A stretch of 32,004 nt of DNA from Oscillospiraceae bacterium (GTDB lineage: Bacteria > Bacillota > Clostridia > Oscillospirales > Oscillospiraceae), in NCBI GenBank assembly GCA_009781855.1, contig WQUY01000026.1:1-32004 (forward strand), in the 5' to 3' direction. The notes under the pieces were generated by a model that was not told the DNA's origin, made no database searches, and saw only the letters and a program-made list of their open reading frames with translations. Shown one piece after another: positions 12,949-20,586 of this stretch; position 1 is the first letter of the stretch; each line of letters begins with the position of its first letter. The position numbers were made by a program, and so were the translations under genes.

Positions 12949-13653
12949 ATGGAATTTTCCGAACTGATTAAACTGCTTGGAATTGTAATCGTAATCATAG
13001 GTTTTATCCTCAAGTTGGAGCCTATCCTTATTGTGTTGCTGGGTATCATAGTGACAGCAATCGTAAGCCTGATGGATCCGATAACACTGCTAGGCACTAT
13101 TGGAAACAGTTTTGTTGCAAATCGCGGCATGGCCATTTTTATTCTCATTTTGCTTGTCACCGGAACTATGGAGCGCAATGGGCTCCGTGAGTCGGCAGCA
13201 AAACTCATAGGCAAGGTTAAAGGTGCCAACCCAGGCAAGGTAATAGGCGCATATGGCATTATGCGCAGCTTCTTTGCTATGTTTAATGTGAGCTTCGGTG
13301 GTGTTGCCGGATTTGTGCGCCCGGTAATCATGCCGATGGCCATTGGTGCGGTTGAAGCCAAAGGTGTAGTGCCTAACGAAAAACATGTAGATACCATAAA
13401 AGGCATGTCCTCCGGCATGGAAAATGTTGCATGGTTTTTCTGGCAAGTCCTGTTTATCACCGGCGGTGGAAACCTGCTGGTGCAATCAACTTTAGCCGGT
13501 CTGGGCATCGAAGTAGAGCTTTTGGAGCTGGTGCGGGTGGTGATTCCGGTTGCGATTTTCGCCTTGGTATGGGCAATCGTCTATTACAACCTCAAAGACA
13601 GAGCACTGCGTAAAAAGTACTATGGCGATGCTGTAGACAAGACGAAAGAATAG
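12949..13653 (+). CDS. DUF969 family subunit of putative 5-oxoproline transporter
   Basis: 234 residues, very hydrophobic, with about six membrane helices. The N-terminus (IKLLGIVIVIIGFILKLEPILIVLLG) and the segment RSFFAMFNVSFGGVAGFVRPVIMPMA are characteristic of DUF969. This family is always paired with DUF979, whose gene starts 12 bases downstream, and the pair is annotated in current databases as a 5-oxoproline (pyroglutamate) transporter. The nearby pyroglutamyl-peptidase gene supports that role. AAAGGA precedes the ATG. It probably sits in the cytoplasmic membrane as a complex with the next gene product. The name rests on family pairing and context, not on visible catalytic residues. 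Confidence 0.87.
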   Translation: MEFSELIKLLGIVIVIIGFILKLEPILIVLLGIIVTAIVSLMDPITLLGTIGNSFVANRGMAIFILILLVTGTMERNGLRESAAKLIGKVKGANPGKVIGAYGIMRSFFAMFNVSFGGVAGFVRPVIMPMAIGAVEAKGVVPNEKHVDTIKGMSSGMENVAWFFWQVLFITGGGNLLVQSTLAGLGIEVELLELVRVVIPVAIFALVWAIVYYNLKDRALRKKYYGDAVDKTKE

Positions 13654-13665
13654 GGGGGCGCTGAC

Positions 13666-14643
13666 ATGACTTTTACTGATGGTTTCACAAACCCAATGGT
13701 TTGGTTTTCAGATCCTGCTGTGGCGACCTCACAAAAACTGCTCGAAATCATGTTTATTATCATGGGTCTGGTGTGTATCAACTCGGCGCTTCGTAATTTG
13801 TTCGATAAAGAAAACAAAGCCCCTATCGGCTCGGGAATTTTCTGGGGCGCATTGGGTATAGTCTTGCTGTCAGGGCGCTGGCTTCCACATGCAGTCAACG
13901 GAATGCTTATTGTTTTGATGACACTGCCGGCGATTTTCCGCAAGGTCAAGATGGGAAAGTCCGATGTGCCAACGGATGAATACACCAAAAATCAAGCGAA
14001 GAAGATTGGCATGAAGATATTCATTCCCGCTTTTTCCATAGGTATCTCGGCGATTTTCTTTGCGTTGGTGTTACCAAACCTCGGCGCAATGGTAGGTGTT
14101 GGTGTTGGTGTGATAATTTCTGCACTCTTCCTGATGTCATTTAACCGTGAAACGAAGCCGACAATTTTCCTAAACGATTCAAGAAGGATGTTGGATGTTA
14201 TTGGGCCACTATGTATGCTCCCTATGCTTCTGGCATCTCTCGGTGCAGTCTTTACAGGCGCAGGTGTAGGTGATGTGATTGCTCAGGTTGTCGCACCTTT
14301 GATTCCGGAAGGAAATATGACCATAGGAATCATAGTCTATGCGCTTGGAATGGTTCTCTTTACAATGATCATGGGCAATGCTTTTGCAGCAATCACGGTC
14401 ATGACAGTAGGTATTGGTTATCCATTTGTGTTGGCGCTCGGCGCAGACCCCGTTGTAATTGTAATGCTTGCGCTCACCACCGGTTACTGCGGAACCCTGA
14501 TGACGCCGATGGCGGCAAACTTCAACATCGTACCTGTGGCAATGCTGGATATAAAAGACAAGTATGCGGTCATCAAAAACCAAATTGCTATAGCGTTGCC
14601 GGTTATGGTATTCCAGATTATTCTTATGATCGCATTGAGTTAA
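13666..14643 (+). CDS. DUF979 family subunit of putative 5-oxoproline transporter
   Basis: 325 residues with about nine membrane helices. The ATG at 13666 follows GGGGGGCGC at good spacing, only 12 bases after the DUF969 stop. Features are the N-terminal ATSQKLLEIMFIIMGLVCINSALRNL segment and the conserved late segment GYCGTLMTPMAANFNIVPVAMLDIKDKYAVIK, which I associate with DUF979. It would form the second half of the 5-oxoproline transporter with the preceding product. The genes for 5-oxoprolinase (PxpABC) are not in the window, so whether the pair imports or exports 5-oxoproline cannot be told. A hairpin repeat and a GC-rich stem follow the stop. Confidence 0.87.
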   Translation: MTFTDGFTNPMVWFSDPAVATSQKLLEIMFIIMGLVCINSALRNLFDKENKAPIGSGIFWGALGIVLLSGRWLPHAVNGMLIVLMTLPAIFRKVKMGKSDVPTDEYTKNQAKKIGMKIFIPAFSIGISAIFFALVLPNLGAMVGVGVGVIISALFLMSFNRETKPTIFLNDSRRMLDVIGPLCMLPMLLASLGAVFTGAGVGDVIAQVVAPLIPEGNMTIGIIVYALGMVLFTMIMGNAFAAITVMTVGIGYPFVLALGADPVVIVMLALTTGYCGTLMTPMAANFNIVPVAMLDIKDKYAVIKNQIAIALPVMVFQIILMIALS

Positions 14644-14685
14644 CGGCGGCACTCTTCGATGCAGGGGCGGAAGCCCGGCAAAACC

Positions 14686-14706
14686 GATGGGAGCGAGACT
14701 CCCGTC
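14686..14706 (+). terminator. Hairpin-family copy 2 after the DUF979 gene
   Basis: GATGGGAG pairs with CTCCCGTC (one G-T pair) around a CGAGA loop, 43 bases after the stop. No T-run follows, so termination is uncertain. Confidence 0.5.
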
Positions 14707-14727
14707 AGCTTAAGGAGTTGACATAAT

Positions 14728-14752
14728 GGCGGCGAAACCTCTTTTCGCCGCC
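14728..14752 (+). other. 10-bp GC-rich stem just before the M29-like gene
   Basis: GGCGGCGAAA (14728-14737) pairs with TTTCGCCGCC (14743-14752) around a 5-base loop. It ends 18 bases before the ATG at 14771, a gene with no clear ribosome site. It may be an attenuating stem or a leftover terminator. Confidence 0.55.
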
Positions 14753-14770
14753 ACTATGCCTACATAAAAA

Positions 14771-15766
14771 ATGCGGAATTTACAATTAGCTCACCGTGGA
14801 GTGGAAATCATAACCCATAATTGGATGCAGGTGCGCAGCGGAGAGTCTGTGCTCATCGTTACGGATGAGGATCATGCACAAGAGATGGAGCTTCTGAAAA
14901 GGTATATGGAGGATATTGGGGCAACAGTGCAACTCGAAATGATGCCCAAATCAGACACAAAATTCAGCGGGCTTCTGGATGCTGCAGATGGGGGTCTGGA
15001 AGAATACGATGTTATAATCGGTGCGACCCACTATTCAATCGTCACAAAACCAGCAGTGAGACTGGCGGTTAAAGAAGGTTCGCGATTCCTATCATTACCT
15101 ATGTCAACAAATGATAATCGCTCCATTTTAGAGTACGATTTTCTAACGATGGACACCGGAAAAAGTCGCTTTGTCGCAAAAGAGCTGCTGAAATTTATCA
15201 GGCAATCAGATTACTTGCGCGTGACGACAAAACTCGGAACAGATTTATATTTTCGGAAAATCGACAGGGAAGCAAATTACTTCAATGGAATGGCGAAAGA
15301 TGGCAAAGGTTTTGCATCCTCCAGCTTTGAAGTGTATGTGCCGATAGAAGAGGATCAGACGCAGGGGGTTGCCATTCTTGATGGCTCTTATGGGTACTTG
15401 GGGAAAGTTGACAGACCCTTTGAAATAGGCTTTGATGGTGGACGAATAGTAAAAATAGAGCAATCAGAGAGCGGAAAAAAGTTGTCAAAATATTTGGAAG
15501 CGTTCAATGATCCGAGAATGTACTATGCTGCTGAATTTGGCATAGGTACTAATTTCTTCTCGCATTGTGAGGGCAATTGCTATATTGAGGACGAATCTTC
15601 CTATGGCACTTTCCATGTAGGATTTGGGCGAAATATAGCCCTCGGAGGTGAGTTTGAGGCAGATGGGCATTTTGATTTGGTGTTTTTAAAGCCAACTATT
15701 TATGCGGACAATCGTATGATTATGGAAGATGGAATCATTATTCCTGCTGTACCTGAGGCATGGTAG
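14771..15766 (+). CDS. M29-like aminopeptidase (leucyl aminopeptidase / NicX-related fold)
   Basis: 331 residues, no signal peptide. The C-terminal third carries the metal-binding pattern of this superfamily: E255 in AAEFGIGTN, acidic residues in IEDESSYG, H282 in TFHVGFGRN, then H300 and D302 in GHFD. These are the expected ligands of a two-metal aminopeptidase. The related dioxygenase NicX shares the fold but belongs to aromatic degradation; the peptidase neighbours favour an aminopeptidase here. The start is the ATG at 14771, which has no clear ribosome site because it follows a run of A residues directly after a GC-rich stem at 14728-14752. The next gene is pyroglutamyl-peptidase, 92 bases downstream. 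Confidence 0.82.
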   Translation: MRNLQLAHRGVEIITHNWMQVRSGESVLIVTDEDHAQEMELLKRYMEDIGATVQLEMMPKSDTKFSGLLDAADGGLEEYDVIIGATHYSIVTKPAVRLAVKEGSRFLSLPMSTNDNRSILEYDFLTMDTGKSRFVAKELLKFIRQSDYLRVTTKLGTDLYFRKIDREANYFNGMAKDGKGFASSSFEVYVPIEEDQTQGVAILDGSYGYLGKVDRPFEIGFDGGRIVKIEQSESGKKLSKYLEAFNDPRMYYAAEFGIGTNFFSHCEGNCYIEDESSYGTFHVGFGRNIALGGEFEADGHFDLVFLKPTIYADNRMIMEDGIIIPAVPEAW

Positions 15767-15858
15767 CAAAGCGCCTGCAGAGGTGTCGATATGGCACTTT
15801 TGTCGGTGTTTCACCGGTGTATGCAGTGGACTTATTGCATTGTTAAAAGGAGAGAGCT

Positions 15859-16503
15859 ATGAAGATTTTAATTTCAGGATTCGACCCATTTGGTGGAGAG
15901 GCCATAAACCCCGCTTTCGAAGCAGTGAAGTTATTACCAAGGAAAATCGGCGGTGCAGACATCAGCATAGTTGAAGTGCCGACTGTTTTCAGAAAATGTG
16001 CCGAGGTATTAAAAGCTGCCATAGATGAAATTAAGCCGGATGCGGTATTATGCATTGGGCAAGCCGGTGGACGCTCTGTCATATCAGTAGAGAAAGTGGC
16101 CATTAACTTGCAAGAGGCGCGTATTGCAGATAATGAAAAAAATCAGCCCATAGGCGAAACAATCAAAGAGGATGGCCCGGCAGCATACTTCGCAACACTG
16201 CCTGTAAAGGTGATGGTTAACAAAATCAAGGAAGAGAAGATTCCGTCGAGCATTTCGTACACAGCAGGTACATATGTATGTAATGACATCATGTATCACT
16301 TGCTTTATATGATTGACAAGGAGTACCCCAATATCCGCGGTGGGTTTATACATGTCCCATTCGATACTGCGCAAGTGCTTGACAAGCCGGATGGCACGCC
16401 CAGTATGCCAGTTGCGACAATAGCCAAAGCGCTTGAATGCGCAGTAAAAGCCATAGCGACCCATAAAGAAGACATCCATGAAGCAGCCGGAACCACGCAT
16501 TAG
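15859..16503 (+). CDS. pcp: Pyroglutamyl-peptidase I
   Basis: 214 residues, the usual length of bacterial Pcp (family C15). It removes N-terminal pyroglutamate from peptides in the cytoplasm and releases 5-oxoproline. The catalytic triad is visible: E78 in SVEKVAINL, C141 in GTYVCND and H165 in FIHVPF. Each is three positions below the Glu81/Cys144/His168 reported for the Bacillus enzyme, so spacing is fully conserved. The start GFDPFGG motif is also typical. AAAGGAGAG precedes the ATG. Its stop codon overlaps the left arm of a perfect 13-bp hairpin, the best copy of the intergenic hairpin family. Clustering with DUF969/DUF979 links product release to transport. Confidence 0.96.
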   Translation: MKILISGFDPFGGEAINPAFEAVKLLPRKIGGADISIVEVPTVFRKCAEVLKAAIDEIKPDAVLCIGQAGGRSVISVEKVAINLQEARIADNEKNQPIGETIKEDGPAAYFATLPVKVMVNKIKEEKIPSSISYTAGTYVCNDIMYHLLYMIDKEYPNIRGGFIHVPFDTAQVLDKPDGTPSMPVATIAKALECAVKAIATHKEDIHEAAGTTH

Positions 16504-16677: not shown

Positions 16678-16700
16678 AGAATCAAAGAGGAGGTTATTGC

Positions 16701-19361
16701 GTGTCAGAAAAATCAAAGCAGATGCCTTTAGGCGGACAACCGGCAGTGGGCGCAGACAAGACCGTCATAAAAGCGCTTGGGCTTAGCGGTGGGATTTTCG
16801 GCGCTTCACCCGCGCAGGTCGATGTAAAGGACGGAAGGGTCATCCGAATCAGACCGCTCCATTGGGGAGAAAAGTATGATTATCAGAAGTTCAACCCATG
16901 GAAGATTGAGAAAAATGGCAAGACATTTGGCGCTCTTCCAAAATCAGTGCCGGCTCCGTGGAGCTTGGCATATAAGAAGAGAACCTATTCACCAAACCGT
17001 GTGAAGTATCCGCTCAAGCGTGTTGACTGGGATCCCAACGGCGATCGCAACACACATAATCGCGGCAAGAGCAAGTATGTCCGCATCTCATGGGATGAGG
17101 CAACTGATATCATCGCTGCGGAAATCAAGCGGCTTCATAAAGATTACGGCCCGCTGTCTATCCTTGTTCAGGGTGATGGACATGGCGAATGTAAAATGAT
17201 CCACGCACCGCATGGTTGCAGCACATTGCTGCTTGACAAAATGGGTGGATTTACACAACAAGTCAGAAACCCCGACAGCTGGGAAGGCTGGTATTGGGGT
17301 TCTAAGCATGTCTGGGGCAAAGGCTTCATAGGCATGATGGCTCCTGCTGACAATGTTGTTAAAGATATCTGCGACCACAGTGACATGGTTGTTATGTGGG
17401 GCGGCGACCCTGAAACAACCCACTGGGGCTTCCGTGGTCAGCTTGCAAGCCGTCTTCTATATTTCTGGACTGAAATCGGCATAAAGCAAATTTATATTTG
17501 CCCTGACCTCAACTACTCTGCTTGTATCCATGCGGACAAATGGATTCCAATTCTACCCAATACCGATGCAGCGATGCAGCTTGCCATAATCTATACATGG
17601 ATTATTGAAGGCACATACGACAAAGAATATGTCGCAACACATACAATCGGCATGGACAAAATAGAAGATTATGTACTGGGTAAAGTAGACGGAGTTGCCA
17701 AGACTCCAAAATGGGCATCGGAAAAATGCGGCGTTCCACCTTGGACAATCAAAGCGCTTGCGCGTGATTGGGCAAAGAAAATTGTCACCATTGGTCACTA
17801 CTTTGCAGGTGGTATGGCACGCGGTCCGTTCTCCCACGAACCTGCCCGTTTAGAATGTGTTATCCTTGGTATGCAAGGTCTTGGCAAACCAGGTGTACAC
17901 CAAGCTCAAGTTGCATATACAGGTATGCCCAAAAACATCATCGGCGCGGGTAAAGACCATATGGGCACATTTGGCCGCCTTGAAGGAACAGCTGCCGGTG
18001 AGCGCATCCTAAAACCACACCGTGGCACCCCGACGGCTTGGGGTAAGCAAATGATACCAAAGACATTGGTAGAAGAAGCCATCAGAAAAGGAACGGTTGA
18101 CTTCTGGGGAACCGGCGGCCACGAAGAAGAAGCCGCCGACCAATATGTCAAATATACATATCCAATCGCCAAAGAAGAGGGTGGCACAGAAATCCGCATG
18201 ATGTGGACAGATACGCCGTGCCGTCAGACTTGCTGGAACAATGGTAATGAGATAGCCTTGACATCTCGCGACTCTCAGATTGAATTCATTCTGGCACAAC
18301 ATCCATGGCTTGAAAATGACTGTCTCTTTGCAGATATAATTCTGCCTGTCAACACGACTCTTGAAGTTGACGACATTTCACCATGTATCCGTGACGGCGA
18401 CAGCTTCCAGAGTGTGCTTTACATGAAGAAAGCTATTGAGCCGGTTGGTGAATCAAAGAGTGACTTTGAAGCTGTTGTTGAGATAGCCAAGAAGCTTGGA
18501 ATGGAAAAAGAAGTCACTGAGGGATACTCAGTTGATGAACTCATCAAAGCGACATATGAGGGTATGAGATTCGACGAAATTGTGCCTTGGGATGAGTTTA
18601 ACGAAAAAGACTATATGGTAATCCCGGTTGCTGAAAATTGGGAAGAATTCCCGGCCGGACTATATCCGTTCTACATCGATCCGGTCAAAAATCCGCTCCC
18701 GACACCTAGCGGCAAACTTGAGTTTTACTCAGAGGGTCTTGCAAAAGCATTCCCCAATGACGAAGAGCGTCCGCCTTATCCACAATGGATTGAAAAGAGC
18801 GCAATTCACGATGAGCGTATTTCCAGCAGAAGGGCGAATATATTCCCGCTGCTCGTACTGTCAAATCACGGCAGATGGAGAGTGCACGCTCAAGCTGATG
18901 ATATTCCGTGGAGTAAAGAAGCATTTACCGGTAAGGTCAGAGGCTTTGACGGTTATCATTACGAGCCGTGCTGGATAAATACTGCCGATGCTGCAGCCAG
19001 GGGCATCAAGCATGGGGATATCGTTCGTGTTTATAATGAGCGCGGAAGTGTCCTTTGCGGAGCATTGGTATTCGAGAGAGTTATGCCCGGTGCAGTCTCA
19101 ATCGACCATGGCGCACGTACAGACTTTATCATTCCGGGTAACTTAGATCGCGGTGGCGCAATCAACCTCATAACTCCGGAAGGTCTGACATCTAAACATG
19201 CTGCGGGACAAGCAACGACGGCGTTCTTGGTCGAAGTTGAGAGAGTCAGCATGGAGCAGATGGACAAATGGATGAGAGAACATCCCGAAGCCTTTGAGCG
19301 CGAGTATGATCCGGCTTCCGGACTTAAATTCAATGCATGGGTCGAAGGGGGAAATAAATAA
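16701..19361 (+). CDS. Molybdopterin oxidoreductase catalytic subunit, transhydroxylase / catechol dehydroxylase type
   Basis: 886 residues from a GTG with AGAGGAGG at ideal spacing. The length fits the large subunit of Pelobacter pyrogallol-phloroglucinol transhydroxylase (about 875). It has no Tat signal and no cysteine in the first 160 residues, so it lacks the N-terminal Fe-S site of most DMSO-reductase enzymes, as the transhydroxylase group does. Key segments are VQGDGHGECK with H161 and RNPDSWEGWYWG with D192 and S193. By memory of the Pelobacter structure (His144, Asp174, Ser175 as Mo ligand) these are probable active-site residues. The C-terminal cofactor-binding domain is present (SNHGRWRVHAQ; TPEGLTSKHAAGQATT). 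It probably acts on a hydroxylated aromatic in the cytoplasm; which one is unknown, since no phloroglucinol-pathway genes are nearby. It overlaps the Fe-S subunit gene by one base. Confidence 0.9.
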   Translation: MSEKSKQMPLGGQPAVGADKTVIKALGLSGGIFGASPAQVDVKDGRVIRIRPLHWGEKYDYQKFNPWKIEKNGKTFGALPKSVPAPWSLAYKKRTYSPNRVKYPLKRVDWDPNGDRNTHNRGKSKYVRISWDEATDIIAAEIKRLHKDYGPLSILVQGDGHGECKMIHAPHGCSTLLLDKMGGFTQQVRNPDSWEGWYWGSKHVWGKGFIGMMAPADNVVKDICDHSDMVVMWGGDPETTHWGFRGQLASRLLYFWTEIGIKQIYICPDLNYSACIHADKWIPILPNTDAAMQLAIIYTWIIEGTYDKEYVATHTIGMDKIEDYVLGKVDGVAKTPKWASEKCGVPPWTIKALARDWAKKIVTIGHYFAGGMARGPFSHEPARLECVILGMQGLGKPGVHQAQVAYTGMPKNIIGAGKDHMGTFGRLEGTAAGERILKPHRGTPTAWGKQMIPKTLVEEAIRKGTVDFWGTGGHEEEAADQYVKYTYPIAKEEGGTEIRMMWTDTPCRQTCWNNGNEIALTSRDSQIEFILAQHPWLENDCLFADIILPVNTTLEVDDISPCIRDGDSFQSVLYMKKAIEPVGESKSDFEAVVEIAKKLGMEKEVTEGYSVDELIKATYEGMRFDEIVPWDEFNEKDYMVIPVAENWEEFPAGLYPFYIDPVKNPLPTPSGKLEFYSEGLAKAFPNDEERPPYPQWIEKSAIHDERISSRRANIFPLLVLSNHGRWRVHAQADDIPWSKEAFTGKVRGFDGYHYEPCWINTADAAARGIKHGDIVRVYNERGSVLCGALVFERVMPGAVSIDHGARTDFIIPGNLDRGGAINLITPEGLTSKHAAGQATTAFLVEVERVSMEQMDKWMREHPEAFEREYDPASGLKFNAWVEGGNK

Positions 19362-20182
19362 TGGGGAAGAAAGTATTTGTAATAGATCTGTCTATATGTA
19401 ATGGTTGCTATTGCTGCCAATTCATGTGTAAAGACGAGCACAGCGGAAATGACTGGAGCCCTATTGCAAAGCCTCAACCTGAGGTTGGCCAGTTTTGGGT
19501 GAAGCTCACTGAACGTGTGCGCGGCACCGTTCCCAAGGTCAAAGTGGCATACAGACCGCATCTTTGTATGCATTGTGATAAGGCGGCATGTATGGCTGCT
19601 TGTCCGTCGGGTAATATCTACAAGCGTGAAGATGGTCTTGTTGTTGTTGATTCGGTCAAGTGCAAAGGTTGCCGCAACTGCGTTGATGCATGTAACTTCG
19701 ATGCAATCTACTTCAACGAAGATTTGAACATTTCTCAAAAATGTACGGGTTGTGCACATCTGCTTGACAATGGCTGGAGTGAGCCAAGATGTGTAGATGC
19801 ATGTCCTACATTGGCCATGAAGTTCATGGATGAGGAAGATGCTAAAGAGCTTATCAAGGATGCTGAGGTATGGAGACCGGAAATTAAAGATAAGACACAA
19901 CCCAGAGTCTATTATCTCAATGTACCTAAGAAGTTTATTGCAGGTACACTCTATGATCCGGTAGAAGAAGAAGTATTCATAGATGCCAAATGTTCACTTA
20001 CCGACGTTGATAATGGCAAAAAGTATGCAGTGGTTACCGATGCATATGGCGATTTCTGGTTTGAAGATTTGCCAGACGGCAAGTTTAAACTCGAAGTTAA
20101 AGCAGGCGGCAAAACAAAGGTGTTTGATGAAATAGACACCACAGGAAACGATGTTAACCTGGGTGATATTCCGCTTGCGTAA
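19361..20182 (+). CDS. Fe-S electron-transfer subunit of the molybdopterin enzyme
   Basis: 273 residues, against 274 for the Pelobacter transhydroxylase small subunit. The ATG overlaps the preceding stop (TAATG), indicating coupled translation. It shows four complete four-cysteine sites: C13/C16/C19/C23; C69/C72/C77/C81; C101/C104/C107/C111; C128/C131/C144/C148. This is the DmsB-like plan for four [4Fe-4S] clusters, whereas the Pelobacter subunit is reported with three. Residues about 190-273 form a beta-rich transthyretin/Cna-B-like domain (FIAGTLYDP...YGDFWFEDLPDGKFKLEV), the distinctive tail of this enzyme group. No twin-arginine or membrane anchor exists, so electrons likely exchange with soluble carriers. 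A strong terminator follows at 20211-20252. Confidence 0.92.
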   Translation: MGKKVFVIDLSICNGCYCCQFMCKDEHSGNDWSPIAKPQPEVGQFWVKLTERVRGTVPKVKVAYRPHLCMHCDKAACMAACPSGNIYKREDGLVVVDSVKCKGCRNCVDACNFDAIYFNEDLNISQKCTGCAHLLDNGWSEPRCVDACPTLAMKFMDEEDAKELIKDAEVWRPEIKDKTQPRVYYLNVPKKFIAGTLYDPVEEEVFIDAKCSLTDVDNGKKYAVVTDAYGDFWFEDLPDGKFKLEVKAGGKTKVFDEIDTTGNDVNLGDIPLA

Positions 20183-20210: not shown

Positions 20211-20252
20211 CTCGGGTGCAGTCTGAAAAGATTGCACTCGAGTTTGTTGTAT
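20211..20252 (+). terminator. Intrinsic terminator of the Mo-enzyme operon
   Basis: CTCGGGTGCAGTCT (20211-20224) pairs with AGATTGCACTCGAG (20229-20242) over 14 positions, two of them G-T, around a GAAA tetraloop. A T-rich tail (TTTGTTGTATT) follows directly. It begins 28 bases after the Fe-S subunit stop. Confidence 0.85.
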
Positions 20253-20334: not shown

Positions 20335-20586
20335 ATGACAATGACCCTGGAGCAATACTATAACGGACTGATTAGAGCTGTAGTTGAAGTCACGGTTAGA
20401 AACAACATAATTGACAGAGTTATAATCACCAATCACCGCAATGGCATGGGGGAAGAGGCTGAGAGAATCATTGACTATGTCCTGGGAGAGCAAACACTAC
20501 AGGTAGATGCGATTACAACAGCAACACGAAGTAGTGAAACCATCTTGGCAGCTATTGAAAATGCATTGAGACAAGGCCTGGACTAA
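20335..20586 (+). CDS. Small FMN_bind-domain-like protein
   Basis: 83 residues from the ATG at 20335, with GGAG six bases upstream; a second ATG lies two codons in. The sequence follows the FMN_bind plan: a short glycine-containing start, EVTVRNNIIDRVIITNH, a helical middle, then VDAITTATRSSETILAAIENAL, close to the consensus VDavSGATxTSxaixxAixxAL in which the threonine can carry covalent FMN. The glycine of SGAT is replaced, so flavinylation is uncertain. There is no signal peptide, unlike many exported members. It lies 152 bases after the Mo enzyme, beyond a terminator, so it may be a separate unit. A redox partner role is speculation. Confidence 0.7.
   Translation: MTMTLEQYYNGLIRAVVEVTVRNNIIDRVIITNHRNGMGEEAERIIDYVLGEQTLQVDAITTATRSSETILAAIENALRQGLD

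What the first reader, a model, noticed from the sequence alone, without database searches (positions are those of the whole stretch)
16701..20182. Transhydroxylase-like Mo enzyme whose small subunit keeps all four cluster sites
The two subunits match the Pelobacter pyrogallol-phloroglucinol transhydroxylase in size, order, lack of an N-terminal Fe-S site and the beta-rich tail of the small subunit. That enzyme is redox-neutral and its small subunit is reported with three clusters. Here 16 cysteines in four complete motifs are visible, which suits real electron delivery, for example reductive removal of an aromatic hydroxyl as in the gut catechol dehydroxylases. No phloroglucinol-pathway gene is nearby, so the substrate may be new.
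Basis: partly seen in the sequence, partly recalled or inferred. Interest (0 to 1): 0.72.

Follow-up and report, generated by a model that had tools for sequence, protein, structure and literature searches.

The report
Four-cluster cousin of pyrogallol transhydroxylase
A gut bacterium carries a molybdenum enzyme related to one that shuffles hydroxyl groups between plant phenols, but it belongs to a separate branch that lacks three tyrosines of that enzyme and keeps a full iron-sulfur wire, so it may add or remove hydroxyls using electrons.

Summary
Window 16701-20182 encodes an intact two-subunit Mo enzyme whose best sequence and fold match is Pelobacter pyrogallol-phloroglucinol transhydroxylase (TH). 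The small subunit has all 16 cluster cysteines; TH lacks four of them.

It is not this genome's TH. Large subunits split into two fully supported clades: T (TH plus four paralogs from this genome, one 63% identical to TH) and W (window, 35% identical to TH). An AU test rejects grouping the window with TH. Three tyrosines kept in 15 of 15 T rows are absent from 98 of 98 W rows; Ser, His and Asp at Mo are kept. The fourth cluster is missing in all 13 T rows scored; in W it is intact in 44 of 74, altered in 9 and lost in 21. So cluster number alone does not prove the reaction.

W and T co-occur and sometimes share a gene cluster. A phloroglucinol pathway lies elsewhere in the genome. The catechol-dehydroxylase analogy fails as kinship.

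Best reading: a cytosolic net-redox phenol (de)hydroxylase working beside transhydroxylases, reductive direction favoured. Substrate, direction and electron partner are unknown. New variant of a known kind.

The parts
16688..16693 (+). Shine-Dalgarno AGGAGG before the GTG start
   Evidence: sequence printed
16701..19361 (+). large subunit, 886 aa, Ser-type bis-MGD molybdoenzyme of clade W (sister to the transhydroxylase clade)
17181..17183 (+). codon of H161 (= TH His144), kept in 98 of 98 W and 15 of 15 T
17274..17279 (+). codons of D192-S193 (= TH Asp174-Ser175; Ser is the Mo ligand in TH)
   Evidence: Ser ligation of this group: PMC10100899 passages
19361..20182 (+). small subunit, 273 aa, four [4Fe-4S] motifs and a C-terminal beta domain
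19397..19429 (+). cluster motif I, Cys 13-23
19565..19603 (+). cluster motif II, Cys 69-81 (Cys 81 goes with the fourth cluster)
19661..19693 (+). cluster motif III, Cys 101-111; 101, 104, 107 with 81 are the ligands absent in TH (FS4 by recalled DmsB/NarH naming)
19742..19804 (+). cluster motif IV, Cys 128-148
19937..20149 (+). C-terminal beta domain (CarboxypepD_reg-like) shared with TH
20211..20242 (+). terminator-like hairpin after the two-gene unit (14 pairs, T-rich tail)

Best explanation
A cytosolic, Ser-ligated bis-MGD molybdenum oxidoreductase of the resorcinol hydroxylase/transhydroxylase family, in a clade of its own (W). It does net-redox chemistry on a phenolic ring: most likely reductive removal of a ring hydroxyl (Mo takes the oxygen, water leaves), with electrons entering through the outermost cluster FS4 and passing along the other clusters to Mo. 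It works next to clade-T transhydroxylases, which only relocate hydroxyls, so that varied plant phenols are funnelled into degradable ones. Shown: clade, predicted fold, four complete cluster motifs, kept Ser/His/Asp, absence of three TH tyrosines, co-occurrence with T enzymes, a phloroglucinol gene set in the genome. Inferred: net redox, phenolic substrate, direction, electron partner.
For: Clades W and T at 100% support in three trees; AU test rejects window with TH, L044 and L109-T as one clade, p = 7.6e-5. TH Y152, Y404 and Y560: 15 of 15 T, 0 of 98 W. FS4: T 0 of 13 intact; W 44 of 74 intact, 9 with only one of the four Cys replaced, 21 lost. The window has all four clusters. This genome has its own TH candidate (L044, 62.7% to Pelobacter TH; window 34.8%), so the window enzyme is not needed for that step. 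W and T: of 60 genomes (own included) 13 have both, 1 T only, 0 W only, 46 neither (sorted by identity; the T call rests on partial hits in G015 and G017; Fisher 2.7e-12, not corrected for kinship). At least 8 of 80 W loci have a T gene in the flank, about 0.33 expected. L109 puts a cyclase, a T enzyme 77.6% identical to TH, an FMN reductase, an IclR regulator and W in one locus. Several W copies per genome in gut bacteria suit substrate-diversified polyphenol enzymes.
Against: No tested activity of a W member was found in the papers searched. FS4 was lost at several points inside W, also in gut Coriobacteriia, so cluster count does not set the reaction. No dedicated electron partner is evident in the window. 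Direction cannot be read from sequence: resorcinol hydroxylase, of the same family, runs oxidatively (PMC10100899 passages). T-W co-occurrence may reflect shared ancestry and lifestyle.
Confidence: 0.45

Rival explanations
1. Oxidative hydroxylase: it adds a water-derived hydroxyl to a phenol (as resorcinol hydroxylase does) and sends electrons out through FS4. In this organism it could make the tetrahydroxybenzene co-substrate that transhydroxylases need (requirement recalled), priming clade T.
For: Same family as resorcinol hydroxylase (PMC10100899 passages); complete wire; W beside T, including beside a 77.6%-identical TH; 13 of 13 genomes with W also have T.
Against: Several W paralogs per genome are more than a priming role needs; a fermenter has to dispose of the electrons; no T hit in 5 of 5 Coriobacteriia with W (where only 31 of 43-144 candidates per genome were scored).
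Confidence: 0.25
2. A divergent transhydroxylase: redox-neutral hydroxyl transfer on another phenol, with FS4 a leftover from the ancestral DmsB-type subunit.
For: TH is the closest solved relative for both subunits; H144, D174, S175 and W176 equivalents kept; FS4 is lost repeatedly, as if dispensable.
Against: Y152, Y404 and Y560 absent in 98 of 98 W; AU test; FS4 intact in 44 of 74 W rows across several phyla suggests that it is still useful.
Confidence: 0.15
3. A reductase or hydroxylase for a non-phenolic substrate (S/N-oxide, heterocycle) or for another group of an aromatic acid.
For: The next best relatives are DMSO/TMAO/MtsZ reductases; residues conserved in W near H161 but not in T (D159, E163, K165, R189, K202) suggest a pocket unlike TH.
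Against: W and T share loci with cyclase, SDR, thiolase and FMN-oxidoreductase genes; the residues were not placed in 3D.
Confidence: 0.15

Closest known systems
Pyrogallol-phloroglucinol transhydroxylase (Pelobacter acidigallici, PDB 4v4c/4v4d/4v4e)
   Same: two subunits of similar size, no N-terminal Fe-S domain, Ser/His/Asp aligned at Mo, small-subunit beta tail; top sequence and fold hit
   Different: 35% identity, separate clade, fourth cluster present, three TH tyrosines missing
Resorcinol hydroxylase RhLS (Azoarcus anaerobius)
   Same: listed with PgtL in the Ser-coordinating group; cytoplasmic, net-redox ring hydroxylation (PMC10100899 passages)
   Different: no sequence reached here, so neither clade nor cluster number could be compared
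Gut catechol dehydroxylases (Dadh, Hcdh, Cadh, Dodh, Eadh1-3)
   Same: proposed reaction type; Gordonibacter-type are also predicted soluble with a 4Fe-4S partner (PMC7028382 passages, PMC12771579 section 5)
   Different: reported as acetylene-hydratase relatives away from TH; the Gordonibacter example has an N-terminal Fe4S4 domain and matches 2e7z, not TH
PsrB/DmsB/NarH-type four-cluster electron subunits
   Same: same four-motif layout; PsrB (2vpw_B) is the second best hit of the small subunit
   Different: those belong to membrane complexes (recalled); no NrfD-type or other anchor was found among the window ORFs scanned

Membership tests
Pyrogallol-phloroglucinol transhydroxylase | two subunits, no N-terminal Fe-S domain, beta tail on the small subunit | tested here: met
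Pyrogallol-phloroglucinol transhydroxylase | Mo-site Ser175, His144, Asp174 | tested here: met
   aligned to S193, H161, D192
Pyrogallol-phloroglucinol transhydroxylase | tyrosines Y404, Y152, Y560 (active-site roles recalled, paper not held) | tested here: not met
   15 of 15 T, 0 of 98 W; the alignment near Y404 is gappy
Pyrogallol-phloroglucinol transhydroxylase | small subunit with three clusters | tested here: not met
   window has four motifs; T clade 0 of 13 have FS4
Pyrogallol-phloroglucinol transhydroxylase | placement in the clade of the verified enzyme | tested here: not met
Pyrogallol-phloroglucinol transhydroxylase | redox-neutral hydroxyl transfer | not testable with these tools
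   needs an assay
Ser-coordinating RhL/PgtL molybdoenzyme family | Ser at the ligand position, PF21423 domain, TH as closest solved relative | tested here: met
Ser-coordinating RhL/PgtL molybdoenzyme family | position relative to verified RhL | not tested
   no RhL sequence was reached
Gut catechol dehydroxylases | acetylene-hydratase-like large subunit with N-terminal Fe4S4 domain | tested here: not met
   no PF04879 in the window protein; acetylene hydratase 52 bits vs TH 428; Foldseek rank 35
Gut catechol dehydroxylases | clade with a verified member (Dadh, Dodh, Eadh) | tested here: inconclusive
   no verified member could be identified; unnamed Gordonibacter/Ellagibacter Mo enzymes fell outside W and T, on long branches
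Gut catechol dehydroxylases | reductive dehydroxylation of catechols | not testable with these tools
   needs an assay
Phloroglucinol pathway gene cluster | reductase, cyclase and BKACE genes near the enzyme | tested here: not met
   none among 24 window ORFs scanned; present on contig C1 of the same genome

The most novel reading that the evidence does not exclude
Clade W is an unrecognised, widespread family of net-redox ring (de)hydroxylases that now passes as transhydroxylase and works as the redox partner of transhydroxylases: it makes or drains the polyhydroxybenzene co-substrate, so anaerobes can convert many phenols, not only pyrogallol. Its outer cluster FS4 is an evolutionary switch: intact, reduced to three cysteines, or lost, several times over.
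Probability: 0.25. Interest if true: 0.75.

Novelty: new variant of a known kind. Interest (0 to 1): 0.5.

Why it matters
Such genes are labelled pyrogallol transhydroxylase in print. The Chloroflexi paper PMC3971608 (passages) reports two transhydroxylase operons in RBG-1351; the record that gave L054 is titled RBG_13_51_18 (that the two are one genome is my inference), and that genome shows exactly two hits, one T and one four-cluster W. If W does net-redox chemistry, inferred polyphenol pathways and electron budgets in gut, peat and sediment change. The natural series four Cys, three Cys, no cluster would let one test what the outer cluster does, and W beside a near-identical TH (L109) makes the origin of the transhydroxylase co-substrate testable.

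Tried and rejected
Filing it as a transhydroxylase: rejected by clade, tyrosines and cluster count. Filing it as a catechol dehydroxylase: rejected as kinship. I tried to find the verified Eadh1/2 genes in Gordonibacter sp. 28C through a PF04909 neighbour; no cluster could be named with confidence, so only an unnamed enzyme of that context (L168) was used. The small FMN_bind ORF after the operon as electron partner: no relative among the ORFs of 20 loci, L026-L045 (the later loci were not searched for it), and a terminator-like hairpin lies between. A radical SAM gene follows W in 5 loci (L026, L027, L028, L030, L047) but is not in the window. Recurrent families fam3 and fam4 look like antisense ORFs of the two subunits and were ignored. 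FS4 loss as a marker of absent T: T is found in 21 of 22 genomes with intact or 3-Cys FS4 and in 1 of 7 with lost FS4 (L049 undetermined), but 5 of the 7 are Coriobacteriia, and L082, L107, L120 and L122 have FS4-less W beside T, so I do not rely on it.

Large-subunit ORFs under 800 aa, under 30% identity or with a duplicate C-terminus were left out of the trees; the partial T gene of L122 (780 aa) too. 25 of 112 tree rows were not scored for FS4: two plasmid rows were skipped, 23 had no small subunit in reach; tandem large genes were given the next small subunit downstream. Two wrong-strand ORFs (L142, L153) were replaced before the tree. The 30 genomes were chosen by me from those behind the 80 loci; in six of them (five Coriobacteriia and G065) only 31 candidates were scored. 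The 41 T copies used were counted by hand (full-length hits of 600 bits or more; a partial one of 601 bits was not counted; calibration), with 3.1 Mb assumed per genome (the listed sizes average about 3.3). One search used one genome too many and counted L049 as intact; one search is the corrected version. One search was nearly useless because 'athl' matches 'athlete'. The papers on TH (PMC511022) and resorcinol hydroxylase (PMC1913315) are not held.
Full report
What is there. The window holds an intact two-gene unit: a large subunit of 886 aa (16701-19361) and a small subunit of 273 aa (19361-20182), with a Shine-Dalgarno sequence, a one-base overlap and a terminator-like hairpin at 20211-20242. 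The large subunit best matches Pelobacter pyrogallol-phloroglucinol transhydroxylase (TH) in the PDB by sequence (428 bits, next 254) and by predicted fold (top by E-value; query-normalised TM 0.84, the other 49 listed 0.76 or lower), and lacks the N-terminal Fe4S4 domain. The small subunit also best matches the TH small subunit and has the beta tail. The large-subunit model is unreliable at residues 191-193, so no pocket was read from it.

The clusters. Sixteen of 18 cysteines form four complete motifs. TH lacks the equivalents of 81, 101, 104 and 107. By the naming I recall from DmsB and NarH this is FS4, the outermost cluster, which exchanges electrons with the outside partner.

Is four unusual? 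Not in its own clade. Of 71 small subunits beside a large subunit more than 44% identical to the window's, 43 have all 16 cysteines, 8 have 15, 1 has 13, 15 have 12, 2 have 11 and 2 have 9. All eight with 15 lack exactly Cys104 (N, H, S or A instead), by recall the position where NarH has Trp and a [3Fe-4S] cluster. The 12 beside large subunits of 31-44% identity all lack the FS4 set.

Phylogeny. A FastTree of 123 rows, an IQ-TREE of 112 rows and a mixture-model IQ-TREE of 40 rows all give two clades with full support. Clade T holds Pelobacter TH, four paralogs from this same genome (L042 on contig C29, L043 on C7, L044 on C11, L045 on C12), and plasmid relatives from Paraburkholderia and Ensifer. 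Clade W holds the window and relatives from Dehalococcoidia, Desulfobacterales, SAR324, Actinomycetota, Clostridia and Coriobacteriia. Holding the window together with TH, L044 and L109-T costs 690 log units (AU p = 7.6e-5). Scored on the tree, FS4 is lost in 13 of 13 T rows; in W it is intact in 44, altered in 9 and lost in 21 of 74; at least 10 changes of presence/absence are needed overall, 9 of them within W. So FS4 has been lost (or regained) repeatedly.

Active site. The His and the Mo-ligand Ser are kept in 98 of 98 W and 15 of 15 T; Asp in 97 of 98 W and 15 of 15 T. TH Y152, Y404 and Y560 are kept in 15 of 15 T and 0 of 98 W; the Y560 stretch is a gap in all 98 W. I recall Y404 as part of the TH catalytic machinery, but that paper is not held. 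W has its own conserved residues near the His (D159, E163, K165, H171, Q187, R189 and K202, each in 91 to 98 of 98). The pocket appears rebuilt.

Genome context. The other 22 window ORFs scanned show no phloroglucinol family. But contig C1 has an SDR whose best PDB match is 5g4k at 386 bits, next distinct protein 126 (I recall 5g4k as phloroglucinol reductase), followed by a PF04199 cyclase and a BKACE enzyme. That is the kind of set described for Clostridium scatologenes (PMC10470551, passages). Contig C19 has a 3-hydroxyacyl-CoA-dehydrogenase family gene, a BKACE and a CoA-transferase. Contig C11 has an enzyme 62.7% identical to Pelobacter TH. So this genome very probably degrades pyrogallol or phloroglucinol, and the window enzyme does something else.

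Link between W and T. Sorting the hits by identity to the window (W 45% or more, T 39% or less), 13 of 60 genomes have both, 1 has T alone, none has W alone, 46 have neither (T rests on partial hits in G015 and G017). In 30 genomes chosen for W, T is found in 23, but a phloroglucinol reductase at 50% identity in only 1, with 40-41% in two more, so the W-T pair is not tied to that reductase. At least 8 of 80 W loci have a T gene in the flanks (L057, L058, L082, L083, L107, L109, L120, and a partial one in L122), against about 0.33 expected (rough, some loci are close kin). In L109 a cyclase, a T enzyme 77.6% identical to Pelobacter TH, an FMN reductase, an IclR regulator and a W pair follow each other on one strand.

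What W probably does. T enzymes relocate hydroxyls without net electron flow. A relative with a rebuilt pocket, a complete electron wire and T as companion most simply adds or removes a ring hydroxyl. I favour removal because several W copies per genome occur in gut bacteria that meet many phenols, but resorcinol hydroxylase in the same family works oxidatively (PMC10100899), and priming of T with tetrahydroxybenzene is an attractive rival. Against any confident reading: FS4 is missing from the W enzymes examined in Gordonibacter, Ellagibacter and Raoultibacter, while other Coriobacteriia keep it; and the FS4-less T pair L043 of this genome lies, two genes away on the same strand, near HdrA2-, HdrB- and VhuD-like and AsrA/AsrB-like genes (all below the curated cut-offs). 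Cluster number and reaction type need not go together.

Comparison with known systems. [quoted passage not shown] A Gordonibacter sp. 28C enzyme in that kind of gene context has 2e7z as best PDB hit (258 bits) and no TH hit at E<=1e-10, whereas the same genome also holds W enzymes (L080, L165). I found no paper that separates W from TH in searches; these cover only openly licensed papers, and I read passages, not whole texts (section 5 of PMC12771579 excepted).

Verdict. Real, conserved, distinct from the transhydroxylase whose name such genes carry, and a new variant of a known kind. Activity is unproven.

Noticed in passing
L043 (own genome contig C7), 1-11765: A TH-clade pair without FS4 lies two genes from HdrA2-, HdrB- and VhuD-like and AsrA/AsrB-like genes (below curated cut-offs) and a 4Fe-4S protein, i.e. 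an electron-bifurcation-like set near a supposedly redox-neutral enzyme type.
   Followed up: partly
L051 2992-6960, L052 5407-9386, L066 2865-6878: In three loci of different phyla a W pair sits beside a Mo enzyme with an N-terminal Fe4S4 domain, an NrfD-type membrane protein and a four-cluster protein (Pfam only for L051).
   Followed up: no
window 20335-20586: An 83-aa FMN_bind protein with a DAITTAT motif, after the terminator-like hairpin; no relative among ORFs of L026-L045.
   Followed up: partly
L026, L027, L028, L030, L047: A radical SAM protein of about 340 aa downstream of the W small subunit in five loci (Pfam for L047).
   Followed up: no
L063, L064, L074, L075: Tandem W large subunits that appear to share one small subunit.
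   Followed up: no
L156, L157 (plasmids of Paraburkholderia hospita, Ensifer canadensis): By eye, these TH-clade small subunits have lost cysteines of motif IV as well as the FS4 set; the Ensifer one has VOC and fumarylacetoacetate-hydrolase genes nearby.
   Followed up: no
G087 (Raoultibacter timonensis) and G015: Many TH-family stretches in one genome: 13 matches in G087 and 18 in G015 (some genes split in two), hinting at substrate-diversified paralogs.
   Followed up: no
window 12949-16503: Adjacent DUF969 and DUF979 genes, a weak M29-type peptidase match (below cut-off) and a pyroglutamyl peptidase: possibly a peptide uptake and cleavage unit.
   Followed up: no
window 16701-19361, around residue 491: The window protein (886 aa) and its 83% relative L046 (892 aa) are some 45 aa shorter than the 70% orthologs, which carry extra loops before and at this point.
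   Followed up: partly
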